DNA of 34,421 nucleotides, taken from NCBI GenBank assembly GCA_903831095.1, contig CAIKWD010000023.1, positions 1 to 34,421 on the forward strand. The letters run 5' to 3'. Source of the stretch: Candidatus Staskawiczbacteria bacterium (GTDB taxonomy: Bacteria; Patescibacteriota; Minisyncoccia; Minisyncoccales; Staskawiczbacteraceae). Positions 4,065 through 34,351 of the stretch are shown piece after piece. Each line of letters starts with the position of its first letter. Positions within the stretch are counted from its first letter, which is position 1. The position numbers and the translations under genes are program-made. Under the pieces are notes generated by a model, which worked only from the letters and a program-made list of their open reading frames with translations, ran no database searches and had not been told where the DNA came from.

Positions 4065-4085
4065 AAATATAATTTTTTGTAATAA

Positions 4086-4112
4086 AAGAGGACGCTTTGT
4101 GGCGTCCTTTTA
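4086..4112. terminator. bidirectional terminator between mrdA and the minus-strand small genes
   Basis: The hairpin GGACGC/GCGTCC (4090-4095 with 4102-4107) has a T-run on both strands (TTTT on plus, TCTTTTATT on minus). It can end both mrdA and the converging 53-aa gene. Confidence 0.8.
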
Positions 4113-4132
4113 GTTTGAGAAAATAAAATTAT

Positions 4133-4294
4133 TTATGGTGATGTGCAGAGCTCATCGAGCTTGCGGAAATAGCTTGACCAGAATGTACTCAGCCAAATAC
4201 TACTGCTGTTCGGCGGGTCATGTTTTATTGCCTCGTTGGCAGTTTCTTTTGCGTGTGCATGAGCGAGTTTCTTCATTTCGGCCGGAATTTTCAT
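4133..4294 (-). CDS. small protein of unknown function (53 aa)
   Basis: No family is recognised. The sequence begins MKIPAEMKKLAHAHAKETAN, a likely amphipathic helix rich in Ala, His and Lys, and continues to an aromatic stretch (WLSTFWSSYFRK). There is no clear membrane helix. The start is supported by an AAAAGGAG ribosome site seven bases before ATG. The gene follows the membrane zinc-ribbon gene by 15 bases and ends 20 bases before a terminator that also works on this strand. Base composition is about 47 percent GC in the two full lines counted by hand, against about 25-35 percent in core genes. The His/Lys/Trp pattern suggests binding to nucleic acid or membrane, but that is only an impression. 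Confidence 0.65.
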   Translation of the reverse strand: MKIPAEMKKLAHAHAKETANEAIKHDPPNSSSIWLSTFWSSYFRKLDELCTSP

Positions 4295-4309
4295 TTTACT
4301 CTCCTTTTA

Positions 4310-4606
4310 TTATTTTACCATATAAAAAAGATTAAGATTATAACACTTTGGACATGTTATCATCCATATTCCTTTTTTCTTTTTCACTCCGCTGTGAAGA
4401 GAATTTTTTTCAAATACTTTATCGCACATGCGGCACTTAAAGCTTGGGTGATTTTTTGGCATCAACGCCATGAATAGTGAAAATATAATAATAATCACTA
4501 CAGCGCCAAATCCAGAAAGAATCAACCAGTCTATCCCTCCGCAGTAAAAACAAAGTCCAGAAAAAAATAATAAACAAGTTACCAATAGATAAACCTTGAT
4601 TTTCAT
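4310..4606 (-). CDS. membrane protein with a C-terminal zinc-ribbon-like motif (98 aa)
   Basis: The function is unknown. Two membrane helices (about residues 4-24 and 28-50) are followed by a cytosolic tail. The tail carries two Cys pairs, CRMCDKVF (about 58-61) and CPKC (about 85-88), in the spacing of a zinc ribbon or rubredoxin-like knuckle. An AAAGGAG ribosome site and a divergent promoter upstream (4646-4674) support the start. Small two-helix proteins with a zinc ribbon are often annotated only as hypothetical. The tail could bind metal, nucleic acid or a partner protein. It shares a transcript with the 53-aa gene downstream. Confidence 0.75.
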   Translation of the reverse strand: MKIKVYLLVTCLLFFSGLCFYCGGIDWLILSGFGAVVIIIIFSLFMALMPKNHPSFKCRMCDKVFEKNSLHSGVKKKKGIWMITCPKCYNLNLFYMVK

Positions 4607-4645
4607 TTTCTACTCCTTTAAACTAATTTTTAATTTGCTACCTTT

Positions 4646-4674
4646 TTTCTATCATTATTACCATGACTCGTCAA
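4646..4674 (-). promoter_or_regulatory. minus-strand promoter for the zinc-ribbon membrane gene
   Basis: Read on the minus strand: TTGACG (4674-4669), a 17-base spacer, TAGAAA (4651-4646). It lies 40 bases before the ATG and back-to-back with the lysS promoter. Confidence 0.65.
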
Positions 4675-4677
4675 GGG

Positions 4678-15645: not shown

Positions 15646-16341
15646 ATGGAAAACAAAAACGCAAAAAAAATATTAAAGGTGGCTGTTGTAATTTATTTGG
15701 CAAGCTTTTTAATTATAAACTGGAGTGATATTTCGTGGATTTTCAATTACAAGATGGTTTCTACAATGGTAAGTGATTTTTTTGATCCTTACCCAACAAT
15801 TAGTGCTTCTTCAATGGACCAGTATTTTTATCCAAATCATAGCCTGCCTGCGCAGGTAGGTCAGGAAACTCCCGTTGTAGTTAAAGAAGTAAAAACCACA
15901 TATACAGATAAGCAAAATACTTTGGAAATTCCCAAATTGGGAGTTTCTGTACCAATGATTTTTTCAACAAATACAAGTACTGAATCTCTTGCAAAAGATC
16001 TTGACCTGGGAGTTATTTATTACCCTGGGTCTGTTTACCCGGGGCAAATAGGACAGATTGTCATACTTGGACATTCAGCGCCAATTGGCTGGCCAAAAAT
16101 GAAAATAGCTTGGGCGTTTTCAGAATTGGAAAAACTTGCGCCTGGCGACCCTATATATATTAATCTTAACAACAAGCAGTACAAATACGAAGTCAAACAG
16201 AAAACAATTGTCAAAAGAGGGGCTGATGTTTCAAGAGATGGGCTAGACACTTCAAAGAATGTGCTTACTTTAATTAGTTGTTGGCCACCAGGGAAAAACT
16301 ATCAGAGAATTACTGTTGAAGCTGAACTCGTTGTTGAATAG
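15646..16341 (+). CDS. sortase (class D/E-like transpeptidase)
   Basis: Sortases cut a C-terminal sorting signal of surface proteins and transfer them to another surface molecule. The 231 residues have one N-terminal membrane anchor (about 10-25) and a linker of about 65 residues. The sortase barrel follows, starting at TLEIPKLGVSVPMIF. The catalytic triad is visible: His143 in ILGHSAP, Cys212 in TLISCWPPG (the TLxTC-like motif) and Arg221 in YQRITVEAEL. The short C-terminus is bare, as in class D/E enzymes. It starts three bases after the CAP gene. The next gene carries a strong candidate substrate signal. An 18-base palindrome (15843-15860) lies inside the linker. Confidence 0.92.
   Translation: MENKNAKKILKVAVVIYLASFLIINWSDISWIFNYKMVSTMVSDFFDPYPTISASSMDQYFYPNHSLPAQVGQETPVVVKEVKTTYTDKQNTLEIPKLGVSVPMIFSTNTSTESLAKDLDLGVIYYPGSVYPGQIGQIVILGHSAPIGWPKMKIAWAFSELEKLAPGDPIYINLNNKQYKYEVKQKTIVKRGADVSRDGLDTSKNVLTLISCWPPGKNYQRITVEAELVVE
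15843..15860. repeat. REP-like 18-bp palindrome inside the sortase gene
   Basis: CCTGCCTGCGCAGGTAGG is self-complementary over its whole length with one G-T pair (15846/15857). It encodes part of the linker between membrane anchor and sortase barrel (LPAQVG). Its GC richness and symmetry are unlike the surrounding AT-rich code, and similar CCTGCC/GGCAGG palindromes are dispersed in many bacterial genomes. Confidence 0.55.
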
Positions 16342-16408: not shown

Positions 16409-17323
16409 ATGGAAAATACATACAAAATAATTTTCAGCGGAGTAGTTATAACATTATTATTTATCGTGGCAGGATTAATTCCTGCAGTTGCCAATGCTCA
16501 GTCATGCACCTATCACTCATCTCAGAGGTGTGTTGGTTCTAGCTTGTATTGGTATGACTCATGCGGAGTACAGCAAGATTTGGCTCAATATTGCACAAGC
16601 GGATGCATTAACAACTACTGTACAAATACTAACAATTATTCAGCAGGTACTTTAACTGCTTCAAAAACTGTTAGAAACCTTACAGCTGGATCTGGATTTT
16701 CAACTTCAGCTTATGCAAGCCCAGCAGACATGTTGATGTTTATGATTACCTTACAGGCAACAGGACAAGATGTTCAAAATGTCCTTGTTAGAGACACTCT
16801 TCCTGCAAATTTGAATTTCAGCGATCAATTGGTAGTTGCTTGTACAACAAATGGAACTATAAGTACAAACTGTACAAACAATATTTACAACTATACTGGC
16901 AACATAGCTTCTGGTATAAACTTGAGCACTATATATGCAGGACAAACAGTAACTATTACTTACCAGGCAAAATTGGCAAACGCAGACAATTTTGCTTTTG
17001 GAACTACAACTTTAACCAACAATGTTATTGTAACCAGTTCAAGCACAGGATATACTCCTTCAAGTAACGCTTCTATTGTCGTTACAAAATCTTCAGTTTT
17101 AGGAGCTAGCACTGTAAATACTGGTTTGACTGACAACTTCTGGGTAGATTCATTCTTGTTGCCAATGATAATAACTTTATTGGGAATTTGGATGTTTAAA
17201 TCTGGAATGTTCTTTGGAGTTGAAAAATGGATAGATAATAAAAGAATGATTCGAAGAGGATATAAAGCAGAAAGGGAATTCACCAGCAGAATAGATGAAA
17301 TACGTAGAGTAGAGAAAATTTAA
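16409..17323 (+). CDS. surface protein with DUF11-like domain and a candidate C-terminal sorting signal
   Basis: This is a secreted cell-surface protein (304 aa). The signal peptide is about residues 1-30, with a likely cut at AVANA/QS. A small Cys-rich segment (about 33-72, seven Cys) may be disulphide-linked. A beta-rich domain (about 78-225) resembles DUF11 repeats of adhesins (VQNVLVRDTLPANLNFS, AGQTVTITYQAKL). The last part has a 20-residue motif (230-249, see the separate entry), a membrane helix (about 250-270) and a basic tail of about 34 residues. The order motif-helix-basic tail is that of sorting signals. It lies 67 bases after the sortase gene and is the obvious candidate substrate; that pairing is inference. 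There is no Shine-Dalgarno. Confidence 0.85.
   Translation: MENTYKIIFSGVVITLLFIVAGLIPAVANAQSCTYHSSQRCVGSSLYWYDSCGVQQDLAQYCTSGCINNYCTNTNNYSAGTLTASKTVRNLTAGSGFSTSAYASPADMLMFMITLQATGQDVQNVLVRDTLPANLNFSDQLVVACTTNGTISTNCTNNIYNYTGNIASGINLSTIYAGQTVTITYQAKLANADNFAFGTTTLTNNVIVTSSSTGYTPSSNASIVVTKSSVLGASTVNTGLTDNFWVDSFLLPMIITLLGIWMFKSGMFFGVEKWIDNKRMIRRGYKAEREFTSRIDEIRRVEKI
17096..17155 (+). other. 20-residue juxtamembrane motif, copy 1 (candidate sorting signal)
   Basis: Codons for VLGASTVNTGLTDNFWVDSF (residues 230-249 of the 304-aa protein), identical in amino acids to the copy at 32969-33028. It lies just before the last membrane helix and a basic tail. TVNTG within it has the x-x-x-T-G form of a sortase pentapeptide. 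Confidence 0.8.
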
Positions 17324-20196: not shown

Positions 20197-20226
20197 TTTG
20201 ACAGTTGTCAAATAAAATGATATTAT
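20197..20226 (+). promoter_or_regulatory. promoter of the 97-aa gene with an overlapping palindrome
   Basis: TTGACA (20198-20203), 17 bases, TATTAT (20221-20226). The -35 is embedded in a perfect inverted repeat, TTTGACA-GT-TGTCAAA (20197-20212), an operator-like arrangement just upstream of the divergent dnaB promoter. Confidence 0.75.
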
Positions 20227-20280
20227 TTTTTTATCGTTTTGTCTTTGCAATTTTAAAATATTTAAACAGGGAGGGAAATT

Positions 20281-20574
20281 ATGGTTGTTTTTACCGCAAT
20301 TTTCGTAATGTCGGTCATTGGAATCCTGGTTATTCTCAGGCTTATTGATGGATTTTCAGAATTGCCAGAAACTATTTCACTGATCAATAATAATCCTACA
20401 GAGAGATATGATCTGGCATATCCAATAAAATATAACAGATCAGGTCGTCCTAAAAAGGTCACATTTATAACCAAGAGTGGCAGAATTCTTGTCGCTAAAG
20501 TAATTTACAGCAATTTTGGAACCTACCTCAAAAGAGGAAATGGCTCTCATTTTTTAAGGGATATTGTTTCCTAA
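20281..20574 (+). CDS. small membrane-anchored protein, unknown function (97 aa)
   Basis: No family is recognised. One N-terminal hydrophobic helix (about residues 2-22) precedes a soluble domain of about 70 residues. That domain is rich in basic and aromatic residues and ends with a probable beta-strand pair (PKKVTFITKSGRILVAKVIYSNFG). The start has a GGGAGG ribosome site. It has its own promoter with a palindromic operator-like site, a 50-base leader and a terminator, so it is a self-contained unit set between dnaB and cysS. The isolated, tightly bounded layout resembles the other orphan small genes here. Confidence 0.75.
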   Translation: MVVFTAIFVMSVIGILVILRLIDGFSELPETISLINNNPTERYDLAYPIKYNRSGRPKKVTFITKSGRILVAKVIYSNFGTYLKRGNGSHFLRDIVS

Positions 20575-20581
20575 ATACCAA

Positions 20582-20608
20582 GCCCAGCATAAACTGGGCA
20601 TTTTTTTT
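20582..20608 (+). terminator. intrinsic terminator after the 97-aa gene
   Basis: GCCCAG/CTGGGC (20582-20587 with 20594-20599), followed by A and eight T. It abuts the 3' end of the converging cysS. Confidence 0.88.
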
Positions 20609-28834: not shown

Positions 28835-30775
28835 ATGTATCAAAAAATCGATTTCGATTTTGATAAAAAGCCAAAAGGAAACCTTGTTGATTATATTAAA
28901 ATATTATTTTTGCCAGTGGTGCTGGCGCTTTTGTTTGCAGTTCAAAACCAAATTTTCAATATTTGGCTTGGCATATATTCAAAAACATATTCTGCCAGGC
29001 TTTTTTATGTTTCTCTTGCGCTTGGAATTGTTTTTTACGGGCCTAGTTTGCTTTTTAAGAAAAAAATAAGATATTGGTATTTTACTATAATTTCTTTTTT
29101 AATTTCAGTTGTTTTTATTGCCCAGTTTTTAAATTACAACTATTCACAAAGTTTTTTACAATTTTCGGCAATAAAATATTTAAACCAGGCAGGAAGCGTT
29201 TTGGGAACAATAAAAACTTTAGTTAACTTCAAATTATTACTGTTTTTAAGCAATTTTCTTTTGGTTGTTGCTTTATTTATAATTTCTGCAAAAAGGAAAA
29301 AGAAAGAATTTATTTTGCCTTCCTGGGAAAAAGTAATTATTATTTTAGCAATGTTTGCAATTGTGTTTTTTGGATACAAATACCTTTTATTTTCAGAAAA
29401 GAAGGAGTGGGGAAGCACAAGCCGACTTTATACAGATGTTTATGACCTAAAAGCCTTGGTTGGTAAAATGGGAATAATGAATTTCTTTCTGGAAGATACT
29501 TTTAAATATGCCTTAAGAAGCAGTTTGGTTACTGATTCAGATAAAACATTCTTAAAAAATTGGGCAGGTAAAAGAACCTTTCAAAGCTCTGACCAATATC
29601 AAAAAAACAAGTTTTTTGGTTTGGAAAAAGGTAAAAATATAATAATTATTCAGGTTGAGTCGCTGGAAAACGCAGTTATAAATCAAAAAATTGGAGGAAG
29701 AGAAATTACGCCAAACTTAAACCAGCTGGCAAAAGATGGAATGTATTTTAATAATTTTTACGCACAAGTTGGCCCGGGCAATACCGCTGATACAGAATTT
29801 TCTACAATGAATTCGCTTTATCCACTACCAGACGACGTTGTTTTTATTGATTATGCAAAAAATCAATACAATGCTTTGCCTCAGCTTTTAAAAAGTAATG
29901 ATTACGAAACTTATTCTTTACATGGAGATGTGCCGACATTTTGGAACAGGTCAAACATTTATCCTGGACTGGGATATCAAAAAGCTTTTGGTTTGAAAGA
30001 TTACAAAATAACTTCGCCCGTAGGAAAAGGTCCGTCTGATTTGGGAGATGAAGATTTGTTTTCGCAGTCTTTGACAAAATTACACGGATTCAAACAGCCA
30101 TTTTTAGCGACTTTAATCACAATGAGTTCGCATACGCCGTTTATTTTGCCCGACAATCTGCAAACTTTGCCAATTTCTGAAAATACAACCTTGGACAAAA
30201 CCCAGCAGAATTATTTGGAGTCTGTGCATTATACTGACAAGGCGATTGGGGAATTTATTGACAGCTTGAAGCAAAACGGACTATATGACAATTCGTTAAT
30301 TTTAATTTGGGGCGACCACGGAAGTTTTACAAATATTGCGCAAGCTTTTGGAAAGGACAATATTTTGCCTGAGTTGAACAACAGCATGGTTCCGTTGATA
30401 GTTTTAGGTTCAAAAGATTTAAAAGGTACAATTGACATTCCTGCCAGCCAACTGGATATTTACCCAACAATAGCAAATTTGCTTGGAATTTCCCCCTTAA
30501 AAACAGTTTTAGGCCAAGACCTCCTAAACACACAAACTCCCATTGAAACTCATTTTGAGCTTGTTTCAGGAGGCATAGACGCTATTCTGACGCCTGATTT
30601 GGCATACCAGGCAGGAGAAGACGGCTTATTTGACCATGGCTCTTGCAAATCCCTTCCCAAACTCAAAGCCTTGCCAATTTCTGACTGCAAGAATATTTAT
30701 ACTCAGCAGGCAAACAATATAAAAGCCTCAAACATTGTTGTCCGAGGAAATTTACTCAACTTAATCTCAAAATAG
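28835..30775 (+). CDS. LTA-synthase-like membrane sulfatase (alkaline-phosphatase fold)
   Basis: LtaS-type enzymes polymerise glycerol-phosphate from phosphatidylglycerol; relatives transfer phosphoethanolamine or phosphoglycerol to glycans. The 646-residue product has about five membrane helices in the first 195 residues and an extracellular catalytic domain. Nucleophile region: GNTADTEFSTMNSLYP with the Thr at about residue 316. Further family blocks: IIIQVESLENAVI (metal Glu), HGDVPTFWNRSNIYPGLGYQ and LILIWGDHGSF (Asp/His at about 492-493). Length and layout match LtaS. With pgsA in the same window a phosphoglycerol polymer is plausible. It could also be a phosphoglycerol transferase of another glycan. 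Confidence 0.9.
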   Translation: MYQKIDFDFDKKPKGNLVDYIKILFLPVVLALLFAVQNQIFNIWLGIYSKTYSARLFYVSLALGIVFYGPSLLFKKKIRYWYFTIISFLISVVFIAQFLNYNYSQSFLQFSAIKYLNQAGSVLGTIKTLVNFKLLLFLSNFLLVVALFIISAKRKKKEFILPSWEKVIIILAMFAIVFFGYKYLLFSEKKEWGSTSRLYTDVYDLKALVGKMGIMNFFLEDTFKYALRSSLVTDSDKTFLKNWAGKRTFQSSDQYQKNKFFGLEKGKNIIIIQVESLENAVINQKIGGREITPNLNQLAKDGMYFNNFYAQVGPGNTADTEFSTMNSLYPLPDDVVFIDYAKNQYNALPQLLKSNDYETYSLHGDVPTFWNRSNIYPGLGYQKAFGLKDYKITSPVGKGPSDLGDEDLFSQSLTKLHGFKQPFLATLITMSSHTPFILPDNLQTLPISENTTLDKTQQNYLESVHYTDKAIGEFIDSLKQNGLYDNSLILIWGDHGSFTNIAQAFGKDNILPELNNSMVPLIVLGSKDLKGTIDIPASQLDIYPTIANLLGISPLKTVLGQDLLNTQTPIETHFELVSGGIDAILTPDLAYQAGEDGLFDHGSCKSLPKLKALPISDCKNIYTQQANNIKASNIVVRGNLLNLISK

Positions 30776-30788
30776 CCAAATTTTTCGC

Positions 30789-30820
30789 AAAAAAATAGCA
30801 GTCCCTCATGGTTCTGCTAT
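30789..30820 (-). terminator. terminator of the 30-aa/37-aa minus-strand unit
   Basis: ATAGCAG/CTGCTAT (30795-30801 with 30814-30820), followed on the minus strand by a run of seven T. Confidence 0.75.
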
Positions 30821-30828
30821 ATATGTTT

Positions 30829-30848
30829 GACCCGTGGTCTTTTTTTTG
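30829..30848 (+). terminator. terminator after the LtaS-like gene
   Basis: GACC/GGTC short stem (30829-30832 with 30836-30839), followed by eight T. It is weak but well placed, and faces the minus-strand terminator at 30789-30820. Confidence 0.55.
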
Positions 30849-30941
30849 TTATCCGAGATATTTTATTGCCAGCAATAACATGGTTGGCAAACCAAATGCG
30901 GTTATTACGCCAAGCAATATAAAAATTATTGTGCTTTTCAT
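30849..30941 (-). CDS. 30-aa single-helix membrane peptide
   Basis: An unknown small protein. The sequence starts MKSTIIFILLGVITAFGLP and is nearly all one hydrophobic helix, with a Lys near each end and LG at the C-terminus. It is preceded by one of the best ribosome sites of the window, AAAGGAGG, nine bases before ATG. It lies 48 bases after the 37-aa gene on the same strand and ends just before a terminator. The size and single-helix design are those of regulatory membrane peptides or type I toxin-like peptides; no antisense RNA is evident. Confidence 0.65.
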   Translation of the reverse strand: MKSTIIFILLGVITAFGLPTMLLLAIKYLG

Positions 30942-30989
30942 TGTCTTTTCCTCCTTTCTAACTTTTAGTTTGTTTTTGTAGTTTTACAA

Positions 30990-31103
30990 CTACTTATAAA
31001 AAATCAGCACATAGAGCAGAAGTAGAATGGGGGGTAAAAAAGTTACCGCCAAAACCTTCAATGCTCTCTTCGCATCCTCGCTCATAACAACTCTTTTTCT
31101 CAT
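30990..31103 (-). CDS. 37-aa single-helix membrane peptide
   Basis: An unknown small protein. A basic N-terminus (MRKRVVMSEDAKRALK, about 16 residues) is followed by one hydrophobic helix (about 17-35) ending in FYK. The start has an AAGGAG ribosome site, six bases before ATG. A near-consensus promoter with an exact TATAAT lies 50 bases upstream (31155-31182). A weak hairpin (GTAGTT/AACTAC) follows the stop, then the 30-aa gene. The N-in, C-out positive-inside pattern is clear. Confidence 0.68.
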   Translation of the reverse strand: MRKRVVMSEDAKRALKVLAVTFLPPILLLLYVLIFYK

Positions 31104-31154
31104 AAGAACTCCTTCTTTTTTATATCTACAAGCTTTTGTGAATGAACCGCGCAT

Positions 31155-31182
31155 ATTATAGCATGTTCGACAGCCATGTCAA
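31155..31182 (-). promoter_or_regulatory. consensus promoter of the 37-aa/30-aa unit
   Basis: Minus strand TTGACA (31182-31177), 16 bases, TATAAT (31160-31155): both hexamers are perfect. Confidence 0.85.
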
Positions 31183-31203
31183 TAGTCAAAAAATCCTTTT
31201 TTG

Positions 31204-31236
31204 CAAAAAAAATCCAGCAAGTTCCTAACCTGCTGG
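31204..31236 (-). terminator. terminator of the three-gene minus-strand unit
   Basis: CCAGCA/TGCTGG (31214-31219 with 31231-31236) with a run of eight T on the minus strand; the plus strand side also has TTTT. Confidence 0.85.
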
Positions 31237-31262
31237 TTTTATTATTATCTGATTTTCAGACA

Positions 31263-31751
31263 TTATTTTATTTTATTGAGGTCTTCGCCGTGGCTAAAAG
31301 CCTTGGCAAAAAGTTGTTGTGGTTGACCACACAAGAGTTCTGTTTTTAATACATAAACCCATAACTGTTTCGTTATTGGGTCTTCCTTGAAATGTGGGCG
31401 CAAACCACTGCCGATTATGCATATCCTGAAAGATTTTACATCTTTCTCATCTCCATTTTCAGAGATGATGCAATATCTAATACCAGCATCTTTGTATTCA
31501 GCAATCGAGCCGATTACTCTGCGCCAGCCGATTACTTCTGCATTCTCGGTTGGTAAAGCTTCGAGCTTCACCGCATTTGTAATAGCCGCCGTTGCCGGGT
31601 TGGTTGACTTGATTCTTTTTCCGTGATGCTTGTTTATTTGGCATAAGCCAAACACTATTGCGCTTCCAAGGACAATTGACAAAAGAATGGTCATTGTCGT
31701 CCGATATCGACTTTCTGATTCCTTCTCCACTTCTTCAATGCTGTTTTCCAT
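31263..31751 (-). CDS. single-pass membrane protein of unknown function (162 aa)
   Basis: No family is recognised. An acidic cytosolic N-terminus (MENSIEEVEKESESRYR) is followed by one membrane helix (about 19-38) with a basic flank (NKHHGKRIK). An outside domain of about 120 residues contains GWRRVIGSIAEYKDAGIRYCI and two or three further Cys. An AGGAGG ribosome site is eight bases before ATG. It is the third gene of a unit with the 58-aa and 51-aa proteins. Two full lines here (31501-31620) count to about 48-50 percent GC, far above the AT-rich core, hinting at separate origin. Confidence 0.78.
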   Translation of the reverse strand: MENSIEEVEKESESRYRTTMTILLSIVLGSAIVFGLCQINKHHGKRIKSTNPATAAITNAVKLEALPTENAEVIGWRRVIGSIAEYKDAGIRYCIISENGDEKDVKSFRICIIGSGLRPHFKEDPITKQLWVYVLKTELLCGQPQQLFAKAFSHGEDLNKIK

Positions 31752-31767
31752 TTTTAATCCTCCTGTT

Positions 31768-31923
31768 TTATTTTTGTCGTTTTGTTACTTTTTCAATTGA
31801 AGTTGCTTGTTTTGGGAAAAAAATTGTTTTGCATAGGTCATATCCCAAGGCAAGAGCCATTGAGATTGCACCAATCAAACACATTACCTTCAGATCCTTA
31901 CGGATCTTTCTTTTTCTTTTCAT
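31768..31923 (-). CDS. 51-aa basic small membrane protein
   Basis: Unknown function. A strongly basic N-terminus (MKRKRKIRKDLK) precedes one hydrophobic helix (about 13-30) and a polar, Lys-rich tail of about 20 residues. The ribosome site is GAGGG, five bases before ATG. The gene starts inside the end of the 58-aa gene (26-base overlap, different frame), so it is translationally coupled to it, and is followed 16 bases later by the 162-aa gene. Confidence 0.65.
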   Translation of the reverse strand: MKRKRKIRKDLKVMCLIGAISMALALGYDLCKTIFFPKQATSIEKVTKRQK

Positions 31924-32074
31924 TTTTACCCTCACTTTTAATTTCTACATGAATCAATGTCAAAAGACTGGGAATTGGCTTTCCTTGGTCTGGATGATAA
32001 GCCGCCAAGAAAAATAAAAAGAAAAGTAAGATTGAAGTGATTATTAAAATCGCTGCAATTATCCATGTTTTCAC
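31898..32074 (-). CDS. 58-aa small membrane protein (GTG start)
   Basis: Unknown function. One long hydrophobic helix at the N-terminus (about residues 3-25, WIIAAILIITSILLFFLFFL) is followed by a polar segment ending in a run of Lys (NEKKKKDP). The GTG start is fixed by an AAGGAGG ribosome site five bases before it; a nearby ATG is out of frame. It is the first gene of the unit whose perfect promoter is at 32120-32148. The overlap with the 51-aa gene and the shared layout suggest the proteins act together. Confidence 0.65.
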   Translation of the reverse strand: MKTWIIAAILIITSILLFFLFFLAAYHPDQGKPIPSLLTLIHVEIKSEGKNEKKKKDP

Positions 32075-32119
32075 CTAGACCTCCTTATATTAATTTTTTG
32101 CATATTTGTACGTAGAAAA

Positions 32120-32148
32120 ATAATAGCACAATAATATTGTCTTGTCAA
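32120..32148 (-). promoter_or_regulatory. promoter of the 58/51/162-aa unit
   Basis: Minus strand TTGACA (32148-32143), 17 bases, TATTAT (32125-32120). Leader about 40 bases to the GTG. Confidence 0.85.
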
Positions 32149-32185
32149 TGCAAATAAATCAACTTAAATTAACAAAATATTTATC

Positions 32186-32213
32186 TTGACAGCTGTATTG
32201 TAGAGAGTAAAGT
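32186..32213 (+). promoter_or_regulatory. probable promoter of the PKD/FN3 surface-protein gene
   Basis: TTGACA (32186-32191), 16 bases, TAAAGT (32208-32213), 29 bases before ATG. Divergent from the minus-strand unit. Confidence 0.55.
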
Positions 32214-32242
32214 TAATATGGAAAAGCTAATTTTTAAAAAAT

Positions 32243-33121
32243 ATGAAAAAAATATTTAAATTACTTTTATTAACTATTGTTTTCTGCACTTTACTTGGAA
32301 CTGAAACAATTGTTTTGGCATTTCAAAATCCAGTGGTTAGCGCTGGTCCTGATTTATATTTGAGTTCCGGGCAAACCATTTCATTTCAAGCTACTGGGTA
32401 TGACCCTAACGGATTTTCCCTTAATTATTATTGGACTTGTACTGGCGGGAACTTGTCTAATTATAATATTTTACAGCCTATTTATACTGCTCCATATGCA
32501 GCTGGCCAAGCTACATATAATTGTACAATTACTGCAACAAACAACTACGGGACTACAAATTCTTCCAGCATGACTATATATGTAAATTACGGCAACAATT
32601 ATAACAACTACAACACTGTCCAAACCAATTATGCTTCATATGTTTCCAACAGCCAGGCAATTTTAAATGGAACTATTCCTTACACAAACCAGTCTTCAAC
32701 AAATTACGCATTTTTCCAGTGGGGAACAACAACAAATTATGGCAACCAAACTTCTCCGCAGGCTTTGGGATACAGTGGATCATTTATGCAAGCCTTGGGA
32801 AACCTGAATCCTGGAACCTTGTACCACTTTAGAGCTGTTGAACAAAACAACTACGGAACATTTTACGGCCAAGATCTGACATTTACAACAACGGGCACAA
32901 GTTATTACAATAATTATAACTACAACAATCAGCAAACATATCCCAATCAAATTATTTACCAGCCAACAGTACTTGGCGCCAGTACAGTTAATACAGGACT
33001 TACAGATAATTTTTGGGTAGATTCGTTTTTTATGCCTTTATTGCTAATTTTAGCTGGACTTTGGCTATACTTTTCTGGAAAAGCCTTCAAATTTGCCGAC
33101 TGGTTAAAAAAGAAAGTCTAA
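32243..33121 (+). CDS. surface protein with PKD-like and FN3-like domains and the shared C-terminal signal
   Basis: This is a secreted cell-surface protein (292 aa). A signal peptide (about 1-28) is followed by a PKD/Ig-like beta domain (about 30-115: SAGPDLYLSSGQTISFQATG, then CTITATNNYGTT). An Asn/Tyr linker and a fibronectin-III-like domain come next (about 128-215: AILNGTIPYTN, LNPGTLYHFRAVEQNNYGT, typical of FN3 repeats in CPR proteins). After a Tyr/Asn/Gln-rich stalk comes the same 20-residue motif as in the protein at 16409 (residues 243-262), a membrane helix (about 263-280) and a short basic tail (KFADWLKKKV). It has no Shine-Dalgarno and ends at a terminator. It is a likely adhesin or surface-display protein handled like the 16409 product. 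Confidence 0.85.
   Translation: MKKIFKLLLLTIVFCTLLGTETIVLAFQNPVVSAGPDLYLSSGQTISFQATGYDPNGFSLNYYWTCTGGNLSNYNILQPIYTAPYAAGQATYNCTITATNNYGTTNSSSMTIYVNYGNNYNNYNTVQTNYASYVSNSQAILNGTIPYTNQSSTNYAFFQWGTTTNYGNQTSPQALGYSGSFMQALGNLNPGTLYHFRAVEQNNYGTFYGQDLTFTTTGTSYYNNYNYNNQQTYPNQIIYQPTVLGASTVNTGLTDNFWVDSFFMPLLLILAGLWLYFSGKAFKFADWLKKKV
32969..33028 (+). other. 20-residue juxtamembrane motif, copy 2 (candidate sorting signal)
   Basis: Encodes VLGASTVNTGLTDNFWVDSF, residues 243-262. Amino acids are identical to copy 1 (17096-17155) but 16 of 20 codons differ synonymously, so the match is held by selection on the peptide rather than by recent copying. Confidence 0.8.
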
Positions 33122-33173: not shown

Positions 33174-33201
33174 TTGACAATTATGGTAATAAGCCTAATA
33201 T
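33174..33201 (+). promoter_or_regulatory. promoter of the 369-aa membrane-protein gene
   Basis: TTGACA (33174-33179), 16 bases, TAATAT (33196-33201), with a leader of about 35 bases and an AAGGGG ribosome site before ATG 33242. Confidence 0.75.
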
Positions 33202-33241
33202 ATATAGCAAGCACTTTAACATATAGATAAGGGGTGACAAA

Positions 33242-34351
33242 ATGAATAAGATATTTTTCGAGGCAATGGTGGCATTATCGGTTATTATAACAACCGCAGT
33301 AGTGGTAATATTGTCGTTTGCAGAAAGATTAAACCTTTCGATTCAAACCTCAATTTTACTGGCATTTGTTGTTGGTCCAATTATATGGTACGCCGTATTC
33401 CCACCGAGAAAAAATGACGGCGCATTTACCGAACTTTTTTCTCTTTTTTGGAGAAATACTGGAAAAAAAATAATGTATGAGTATGAAATCAGATTGGCGG
33501 TTGAAAGGCATACGCCACTTGATTTAGATGTAAAATTCTTAACGAAAGTAAAAATATTTTTCATCTCAATATTTACTTTTTCCCCAAAGCCAAACGATTG
33601 GGATAAAAGAGAAATTTTTGGAATATCTTTCTGCTTTTTATGGTTAGGAATATTCCTAACATCTTGCTGGTTTGTGACATCCATGGTAACAGTCGCAAAC
33701 AGGTATTCCTTTGCAGTTGTGATCGTTTTCCATCTATACGCTTGTTTTTTTGTAAGCGTCTATATACATTTTATAGACGTATTTTTAAAACCAAGCTGGT
33801 GGTTGCCGATATTCTGCCGAATTTCGGTAAAAACTTACGATTCAGTTAGGCAATTTGAAGATTACATTTACTCCAAATACAGGATTAGCAATCACGAACA
33901 TGAAAAAGTTGCTGCGATAATTATTGCCATAATTTTCCCATTTTTATTCGCTGCAGTTTTAATGATTGTTTTGGAAATTCTGGCAATTGATGCGGTTTTA
34001 ACTGCAATATTTGCCATTGCGTACACAAAAAGGATTGCCATTTTCCTTGGCATCTTAATTGGTGCGCTAATAGGAAAATTTGCACAAAGTATTATTCCGT
34101 TTGACCACACTTTGACAGTTATAACTTGCTGTATAATTGGGGTACCCATAGGTAGTTGGATAATCACAATGAAAGAATATCTAACATATGATCCGCCTCA
34201 AAAGAAGGTATTAACAGGTTTTCGCATTCGAAAACAAACGCCGTTGGATTTCCAACGGTTTTTTATTGTGCGACAACACGTGCAGAAGATGAGATACATA
34301 GGTAACACCCCTAAACTGCCAAAAACTGGTAGAATAGGGCTGAAAACCTAA
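33242..34351 (+). CDS. polytopic membrane protein of unknown function
   Basis: No family is recognised (369 aa). About eight hydrophobic helices are visible. A pair lies at the N-terminus (8-30, 35-53). A cytosolic stretch of about 55 residues follows (RHTPLDLDVKFLTKV). Two helices lie around residues 125-180. After another polar loop there are four close helices from about 220 to 315. A start with ribosome site AAGGGG and a promoter supports it, in the manner of the small orphan genes. The 3' end is odd: a strong terminator hairpin (34242-34265) sits inside the reading frame. The last 35 or so residues are then unlikely to be translated normally, or the frame has been shifted; a +1 frame has a stop at 34212 just before the hairpin. 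Confidence 0.7.
   Translation: MNKIFFEAMVALSVIITTAVVVILSFAERLNLSIQTSILLAFVVGPIIWYAVFPPRKNDGAFTELFSLFWRNTGKKIMYEYEIRLAVERHTPLDLDVKFLTKVKIFFISIFTFSPKPNDWDKREIFGISFCFLWLGIFLTSCWFVTSMVTVANRYSFAVVIVFHLYACFFVSVYIHFIDVFLKPSWWLPIFCRISVKTYDSVRQFEDYIYSKYRISNHEHEKVAAIIIAIIFPFLFAAVLMIVLEILAIDAVLTAIFAIAYTKRIAIFLGILIGALIGKFAQSIIPFDHTLTVITCCIIGVPIGSWIITMKEYLTYDPPQKKVLTGFRIRKQTPLDFQRFFIVRQHVQKMRYIGNTPKLPKTGRIGLKT
34242..34265 (+). terminator. intrinsic terminator inside the end of the 369-aa reading frame
   Basis: CCGTTGG/CCAACGG (34242-34248 with 34253-34259), loop ATTT, followed by TTTTTATT. It would stop transcription before the annotated stop at 34351. The rest of the window (34352-34421) shows nothing I can identify. 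Confidence 0.75.

What the first reader, a model, noticed from the sequence alone, without database searches (positions are those of the whole stretch)
30849..32148. A minus-strand cluster of five tiny membrane proteins in two strongly promoted units
Genes of 58, 51, 162, 37 and 30 residues, each with one hydrophobic helix and a strong ribosome site, lie in two units (32120-31204 and 31182-30789). The promoters are TTGACA-17-TATTAT and TTGACA-16-TATAAT, among the best in the window, and each unit has its own terminator. The 58- and 51-residue genes overlap by 26 bases. No product is recognisable. Two full lines within the 162-aa gene (31501-31620) count to about 48-50 percent GC against about 25-35 percent in neighbouring core genes. 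A set of single-helix peptides that would assemble with one larger bitopic partner could be a membrane complex, a bacteriocin/immunity set or a host-interaction system of an epibiont.
Basis: partly seen in the sequence, partly recalled or inferred. Interest (0 to 1): 0.72.

Follow-up and report, generated by a model that had tools for sequence, protein, structure and literature searches.

The report
Swappable gene cassettes in Parcubacteria chromosome
The five tiny membrane-protein genes are real. They form two self-contained, strongly promoted and probably foreign gene cassettes in a chromosomal slot that holds different, unrelated cassettes in sister species, so they look like part of an exchangeable gene pool in a tiny-genome bacterium rather than one conserved membrane machine.

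Summary
In detail: five minus-strand ORFs (58, 51, 162, 37 and 30 aa), each with one hydrophobic helix, in two units with the two best minus-strand promoters of the 14-kb scan and strong terminators. Four SD-led ORFs of at least 30 aa were found against 0.05 expected in 2000 shuffles. The genome is a Candidatus Staskawiczbacteria MAG (806 kb; relatives named). None of the five has a credible relative in 247 genomes of the order or in any library searched. The sulfatase-to-PKD interval that holds them carries different, mutually unrelated cassettes in three sister species (G009, G003, G007). Two more intergenic slots in this window (cysS-dnaB, pbp2-lysS) behave the same way: empty in some species, differently filled in others. 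Over the three slots, cassette genes average 47% GC against 36% for core genes, and 25 of 29 have a strong SD. Two homologous pairs in the same slot show codon-position conservation. Best reading: two moron-like autonomous cassettes in a variable chromosomal slot. A fixed five-part complex is not supported. What the proteins do (membrane exclusion, immunity or host interaction) and how cassettes insert remain inferred.

The parts
32120..32148 (-). Unit 1 promoter TTGACA-17-TATTAT (TG before the -10)
   Evidence: 11/12 matches
31898..32074 (-). o58: 58 aa, GTG start, one TM helix; SD AAGGAGG
31768..31923 (-). o51: 51 aa, one TM helix, net charge +11; weak SD GAGG; overlaps o58 by 26 bases
31263..31751 (-). 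o162: 162 aa, N-terminal TM (about residues 17-41) then about 120 aa soluble part; SD AGGAGG; GC 41%
   Evidence: no relative
31206..31236 (-). Unit 1 intrinsic terminator CCAGCAGGTT/AACTTGCTGG + T8
   Evidence: -14.0 kcal/mol
31155..31182 (-). Unit 2 promoter TTGACA-16-TATAAT (TG before the -10)
   Evidence: 12/12 matches
30990..31103 (-). o37: 37 aa, one TM helix; SD AAGGAG
30849..30941 (-). o30: 30 aa, almost wholly one TM helix; SD AAGGAGG
30789..30820 (-). Unit 2 intrinsic terminator (AGCAG...CTGCT + T7), 14 bases from the sulfatase stop
   Evidence: -12.6 kcal/mol
31197..31211 (.). Direct repeat copy TTTTTTGCAAAAAAA at the end of unit 1 (pair with 30781-30795; the pair brackets unit 2)
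   Evidence: D6, 93% identical
30781..30795 (.). Direct repeat copy TTTTTCGCAAAAAAA at the end of unit 2
   Evidence: D6
30776..32242 (.). Slot 1: interval between the sulfatase gene (28835-30775, +) and the PKD surface-protein gene (32243-33121, +); different content in sister species
20198..20607 (+). Slot 2 (cysS-dnaB) cassette: promoter TTGACA-17-TATTAT, GGAGG, 97-aa TM-anchored ORF (20281/20284-20574), terminator; slot is 43-57 bp in three sister species
4081..4675 (-). Slot 3 (pbp2-lysS) cassette: 98-aa TM protein with Cys pairs + 53-aa ORF, terminator; slot about 70-130 bp in two sister species

Best explanation
The cluster is two head-to-tail, self-contained expression cassettes of horizontally acquired, lineage-private genes sitting in a variable chromosomal slot of a Candidatus Staskawiczbacteria genome. 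Each cassette carries a near-consensus sigma-70 promoter, a leader of about 45-50 nt, strong ribosome sites, two or three small genes and an intrinsic terminator, so it can be expressed wherever it lands without disturbing its neighbours (shown for the anatomy, inferred for expression). The slot, and at least two others in the same 34 kb, holds unrelated cassettes from species to species (shown). The likely work of this pair is to put small bitopic proteins, one with a soluble part probably outside the cytoplasm (o162), into the cytoplasmic membrane as lineage-specific exclusion, immunity or cell-contact functions, much as phage morons do (inferred; about 0.25 for this function class). How cassettes enter is unknown; capture of foreign DNA followed by illegitimate or short-homology recombination between core genes is the default (inferred).
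For: Promoters, SDs, ORFs and terminators far above chance. None of the five in 247 order genomes: 162 aa (only a 34% match over 66 aa inside a 397-aa frame), the four small ones (only weak hydrophobic matches inside larger frames). Slot 1 holds unrelated cassettes in G009 (45+80+80+80 aa, GC 56-60%), G003 (65+210 aa) and G007 (109 aa, opposite strand). Slot 2 is empty (43-57 bp) in G008, G002, G010 and filled with 388-1305 bp in eight species. Slot 3 is nearly empty in G008 and G005 and filled in seven or more. Slot genes: mean GC 0.47 against 0.36 core (p 7e-9), first-gene promoter score 10.15 against 8.47 (p 7e-8), 25/29 strong SD. Same-slot homologous pairs show codon position 2 > 1 > 3 conservation (zinc ribbon, 42% identity, dN 0.52 with dS saturated; PEP-CTERM, dN 0.80, dS 2.4). 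More such cassettes lie elsewhere in the genome. PEP-CTERM cargo in a genus with no detected exosortase.
Against: No empty version of slot 1 close enough to place exact junctions. No integrase, attC or target-site duplication was found, so insertion is inferred. The own cluster's GC (36% overall) is only mildly raised. The core-gene promoter control contains operon-internal genes. Transcription, translation and function are untested. No relative of any cassette tried was found in the phage, plasmid or IMG/VR collections at the sensitivity used, so the donor is unknown.
Confidence: 0.72

Rival explanations
1. A co-adapted membrane complex: four single-helix peptides assemble around the 162-aa bitopic protein.
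For: All five are single-helix proteins on one strand; three lie in one predicted transcription unit.
Against: Separate promoter and terminator for o37/o30; the set was not found in any relative; single-helix cassette genes occur singly in other slots (97-aa in slot 2, 145-aa L051, 48-aa L053), so small TM proteins are a general trait of cassettes. AlphaFold of o162 alone is uninformative (pLDDT 43).
Confidence: 0.12
2. Bacteriocin/immunity or type I toxin-like hydrophobic peptides with a membrane-anchored immunity protein.
For: Peptides of 30-58 aa with one helix fit the size of hydrophobic toxins; o51 is strongly basic (+11).
Against: No leader peptide, modification enzyme or transporter recognised nearby; strong promoter and open SD are odd for a toxin that must be kept low; no family hit.
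Confidence: 0.1
3. Cassettes are moved by a dedicated recombination system of these bacteria, integron-like but without attC, the 15-nt TTTTTYGCAAAAAAA repeats being traces of its sites.
For: Recurrent slots, cassette unit size, orientation constant in slot 2, tandem cassettes; 15-nt direct repeats bracket unit 2; T-run+GC follows about a third of cassette terminators, not only in this species.
Against: No integron integrase over the curated cut-off, only one Xer-like frame; most cassette ends lack the motif (AT follows more often); the motif is also found outside cassettes.
Confidence: 0.12
4. The slot genes are old native genes that evolve so fast that homology is lost; no transfer is involved.
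For: Two same-slot pairs are still recognisable homologues (zinc ribbon in slot 2, PEP-CTERM in slot 3), as expected from vertical descent in some lineages.
Against: Lengths, gene numbers, strands and membrane topology differ within one slot; several species are empty; GC mostly 44-60% in relatives whose core genes are 32-44%; PEP-CTERM cargo without a detected exosortase.
Confidence: 0.1

Closest known systems
Phage morons (independently regulated accessory genes of prophages; glossary in PMC7380047)
   Same: Own promoter (and, from general knowledge, own terminator), deviant GC, variable presence at one place among relatives, small and often membrane proteins.
   Different: Here they sit between housekeeping genes of a bacterial chromosome with no prophage recognised around them, in several slots, and often in tandem.
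Integron gene cassettes
   Same: Small private ORFs, tandem cassettes, exchangeable content.
   Different: Each cassette brings promoter and terminator; no IntI over cut-off; no attC seen; slots dispersed over the chromosome.
Strong-promoter anti-defence genes of archaeal viruses (PMC11065993)
   Same: Genes of private kind recognisable by shared strong regulatory sequences.
   Different: Viral genomes there; bacterial chromosome here and no defence target known.
Archaeal dark-matter islands (PMC4158269)
   Same: Clusters of narrowly spread, fast-evolving genes in cellular genomes.
   Different: Those are described as clusters making up as much as 20% of a genome; these are 0.4-1.4-kb cassettes, each with its own promoter and terminator, in recurrent intergenic slots.

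Membership tests
Moron (phage) | Independent promoter and terminator | tested here: met
   Both units; other slots:
Moron (phage) | Base composition different from neighbours | tested here: met
   Met for slot genes as a set (0.47 vs 0.36); weak for o58, o51, o30 taken alone
Moron (phage) | Absent or replaced at the same place in relatives | tested here: met
Moron (phage) | Lies in a phage or prophage genome | tested here: not met
   Flanked by cellular genes (sulfatase, PKD surface protein); no PHROG hit. So it works like a moron but is not filed as one.
Integron gene cassette | Integron integrase in the genome | tested here: not met
   TIGR02249: best 80.8 bits against cut-off 265, a level of match also seen in all 14 control genomes
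Integron gene cassette | attC site between cassettes | tested here: inconclusive
   Intercassette stretches read by eye and by repeat search: no imperfect-palindrome attC seen, but no dedicated attC model was run
Anti-phage defence system | Match to a known defence family | tested here: not met
   PADLOC: none for ten cassette proteins

The most novel reading that the evidence does not exclude
Staskawiczbacteria, and probably much of their Parcubacteria order, maintain a genome-wide system of exchangeable, transcriptionally autonomous ORFan cassettes in recurrent chromosomal slots, moved by an undescribed capture mechanism, with cargo that partly acts on the host cell (for example PEP-CTERM proteins although the bacterium has no detected exosortase).
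Probability: 0.25. Interest if true: 0.85.

Novelty: new variant of a known kind. Interest (0 to 1): 0.62.

Why it matters
Candidate Phyla Radiation bacteria are generally seen as streamlined, yet many of their genes have no relatives. If many of those genes come as self-contained cassettes in swappable slots, it explains where part of the dark proteome comes from, gives a simple way to list it (near-consensus promoter + AGGAGG + terminator between core genes), and makes the hypotheses of phage exclusion and host interaction testable gene by gene.

Tried and rejected
Pfam, PHROGs, NCBIfam, PADLOC, PDB sequences: nothing credible for any of the five (PDB for o162 only; weak hits such as SosA, YnaM, H2A.Z are chance). 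Viral contigs, phages, plasmids: no relatives. AlphaFold of the 162-aa protein without an alignment: pLDDT 43, useless, so no fold search was run. Integron integrase: only Xer-like. A universal boundary motif after the terminators (T-run+GC): only about a third of cassettes, rejected as general. Concatenated query of 14 cassette proteins: found one 39% relative in another family (L113, a 3.4-kb contig with a MoxR-like ATPase gene), but the search missed several perfect own matches, so its negatives are weak. The order-wide promoter pattern also picks up ordinary promoters; loci read afterwards include many small membrane or secreted ORFs but this was not quantified.

Full report
WHAT IS THERE. 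On the minus strand between a sulfatase-family gene (28835-30775, +; PF00884) and a PKD-domain surface protein (32243-33121, +; PKD_4 just below Pfam's cut-off) lie two predicted transcription units. Unit 1: TTGACA-17-TATTAT (32148-32120), o58 (GTG, 32074-31898), o51 (31923-31768, overlapping o58 by 26 bases), o162 (31751-31263), terminator 31236-31206. Unit 2: TTGACA-16-TATAAT (31182-31155), o37 (31103-30990), o30 (30941-30849), terminator 30820-30789. In 2000 dinucleotide shuffles of the region a mean of 0.05 SD-led ORFs of at least 30 aa appear (maximum 2); four are observed, and the opposite strand has none. Each protein has one hydrophobic stretch. o162 has an N-terminal helix and about 120 further residues; its lone AlphaFold model is not usable (pLDDT 43).

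WHOSE GENOME. The window is the whole contig C23 of an 806-kb, 31-contig assembly.

NO RELATIVES. o162: none in the genus, one E = 0.005 match over 66 residues inside a 397-residue frame in 247 order genomes, none in GTDB genome contigs, IMG/VR, phages, or Pfam, PHROGs, NCBIfam, PADLOC or PDB. The four small proteins, searched as one spaced query, match only stretches of longer frames at E of 7e-4 or weaker. DNA of the cluster has no plasmid match.

SLOT 1. The sulfatase is present in 10 of the other 11 genus genomes. Downstream of it: G009 has three promoters and four ORFs (80, 80, 80, 45 aa; GC 56-60%) on the minus strand; G003 has at least two units (65 and 210 aa) on the minus strand up to the contig end; G007 has a plus-strand unit (12/12 promoter, 109 aa, GC 58%) directly before the next gene; G011 and G004 have an ordinary-looking plus-strand gene (resembling DUF763 by eye, not tested); G001 has two larger genes; G008 has the PKD gene close by. 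An all-against-all of 50 cassette proteins found no similarity across species apart from the same-slot pairs below and one marginal match.

SLOTS 2 AND 3. To test whether this is general I looked at two other intergenic gaps of the window in relatives. They were chosen because this window has a cassette there, so own occupancy is not independent evidence, but the content in relatives is. cysS-dnaB: 43, 55 and 57 bp in G010, G008, G002; 388-1305 bp in own, G009, G007, G006, G001, G003, G004, G011. Own has a 97-aa TM-anchored protein behind an 11/12 promoter; G003 180+101 aa; G004 131+116 aa; G011 108+111 aa behind a 12/12 promoter; G009 and G006 have no SD-led ORF and may be decayed. pbp2-lysS: nearly empty in G008 (about 130 bp) and G005 (about 70 bp); own 98+53 aa, G003 252 aa, G009 241 aa, G010 265 aa, G002 103 aa, G011 53 aa, G004 85 aa. 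Over all 29 slot genes: mean GC 0.470 against 0.359 for 81 genes of at least 200 aa from the own-genome sample (Mann-Whitney p 7e-9); first-gene promoter score 10.15 against 8.47 (p 7e-8); strong SD in 25 of 29. Core genes of the same relatives have GC 0.32-0.44. The promoter control includes operon-internal genes, so that contrast is an upper bound; slot genes were partly picked by their SD, so the SD count is too.

THE SLOT GENES ARE REAL GENES. Two pairs of homologues occur in the same slot of two species: a 116/111-aa zinc-ribbon protein (42% identity, E 2e-31; codon positions 0.57/0.67/0.35 identical; dN 0.52, dS saturated) and a PEP-CTERM protein of 241/265 aa (E 1e-17; dN 0.80, dS 2.4). 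The zinc-ribbon protein has full-length relatives in only two of 247 order genomes, plus a 22-residue match in a third. The PEP-CTERM motif of the G009 protein is above Pfam's cut-off, yet no exosortase was found in any of the 12 genus genomes. So this cargo either came from another lineage or is meant for another cell's exosortase.

MORE CASSETTES. In about 222 kb of the own genome (plus the window) the same anatomy recurs: L053 4093-5405 (48-aa TM peptide, then 250 aa, two promoters at 12/12), L046 8033-9390 (205 aa, then a multi-helix protein), L051 19300-18740 (145-aa TM-anchored), L057 and L052. Two of these, on different contigs, share 29 of 33 bases across the promoter, a hint that promoter modules travel. 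The 250-aa protein has a 40% relative in another family of the order, beside a MoxR-like ATPase gene on a 3.4-kb contig.

HOW IT LIKELY WORKS. Shown: autonomous anatomy, private content, slot variability. Inferred: strong, context-independent expression; acquisition by horizontal transfer; membrane-located products with lineage-specific jobs, for which phage or element exclusion, immunity, or contact with a host cell are the candidates. No integron integrase passes its cut-off. Unit 2 is bracketed by a 14/15 direct repeat TTTTTYGCAAAAAAA, and T-run+GC follows about a third of cassette terminators, but the motif is neither universal nor exclusive, so I do not claim a recombination site.

COMPARISON. 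The anatomy is that of phage morons (PMC7380047 for the definition; terminators and GC from general knowledge), but the place is a bacterial chromosome with no prophage recognised. Integron cassettes differ by usually lacking their own promoter and terminator and by needing IntI and attC. The literature search found no description of such cassettes in Patescibacteria within the open library held here, which is not proof that none exists.

VERDICT. Observation confirmed. Interpretation moved from a five-part membrane complex to two occupants of an exchangeable cassette slot.

Noticed in passing
window 15646-16341, 16409-17323, 32243-33121: A sortase (PF04203, 6e-21) next to a secreted protein; that protein and the PKD protein flanking the cluster both end in VLGASTVNTGLTDNFWVDSF-helix-basic tail: a likely shared cell-wall sorting signal of this lineage.
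   Followed up: partly
L135:644-1369 and L139 (slot 3 of G009 and G010): PEP-CTERM-type proteins in genomes without a detectable exosortase.
   Followed up: partly
window 33174-34351: The 369-aa multi-helix ORFan after the PKD gene also starts with a TTGACA-16-TAATAT promoter right behind a terminator; it may be a further cassette, close to the contig end.
   Followed up: no
L113 (G050:C83, 3389 bp): GC-rich contig with strong SDs, a MoxR-like ATPase gene and a relative of the own 250-aa cassette metallopeptidase-like protein (VHELCHC); possibly a mobile element of Parcubacteria.
   Followed up: partly
L053:4093-4125 and L046:8838-8870: 33-bp promoter stretches 88% identical at two unrelated cassettes on different contigs.
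   Followed up: partly
L120 and L128 (slot 2 of G009 and G006): Filled slots without any SD-led ORF; possibly decayed cassettes or structured RNA.
   Followed up: no
leaders at L053:4160-4180 and L046:8900-8922: Small GC-rich hairpins (GGGC-AAAATA-GCCC, GAGCTC-AAAAC-GAGCTC) just upstream of the SD in cassette leaders; perhaps mRNA stabilisers.
   Followed up: no
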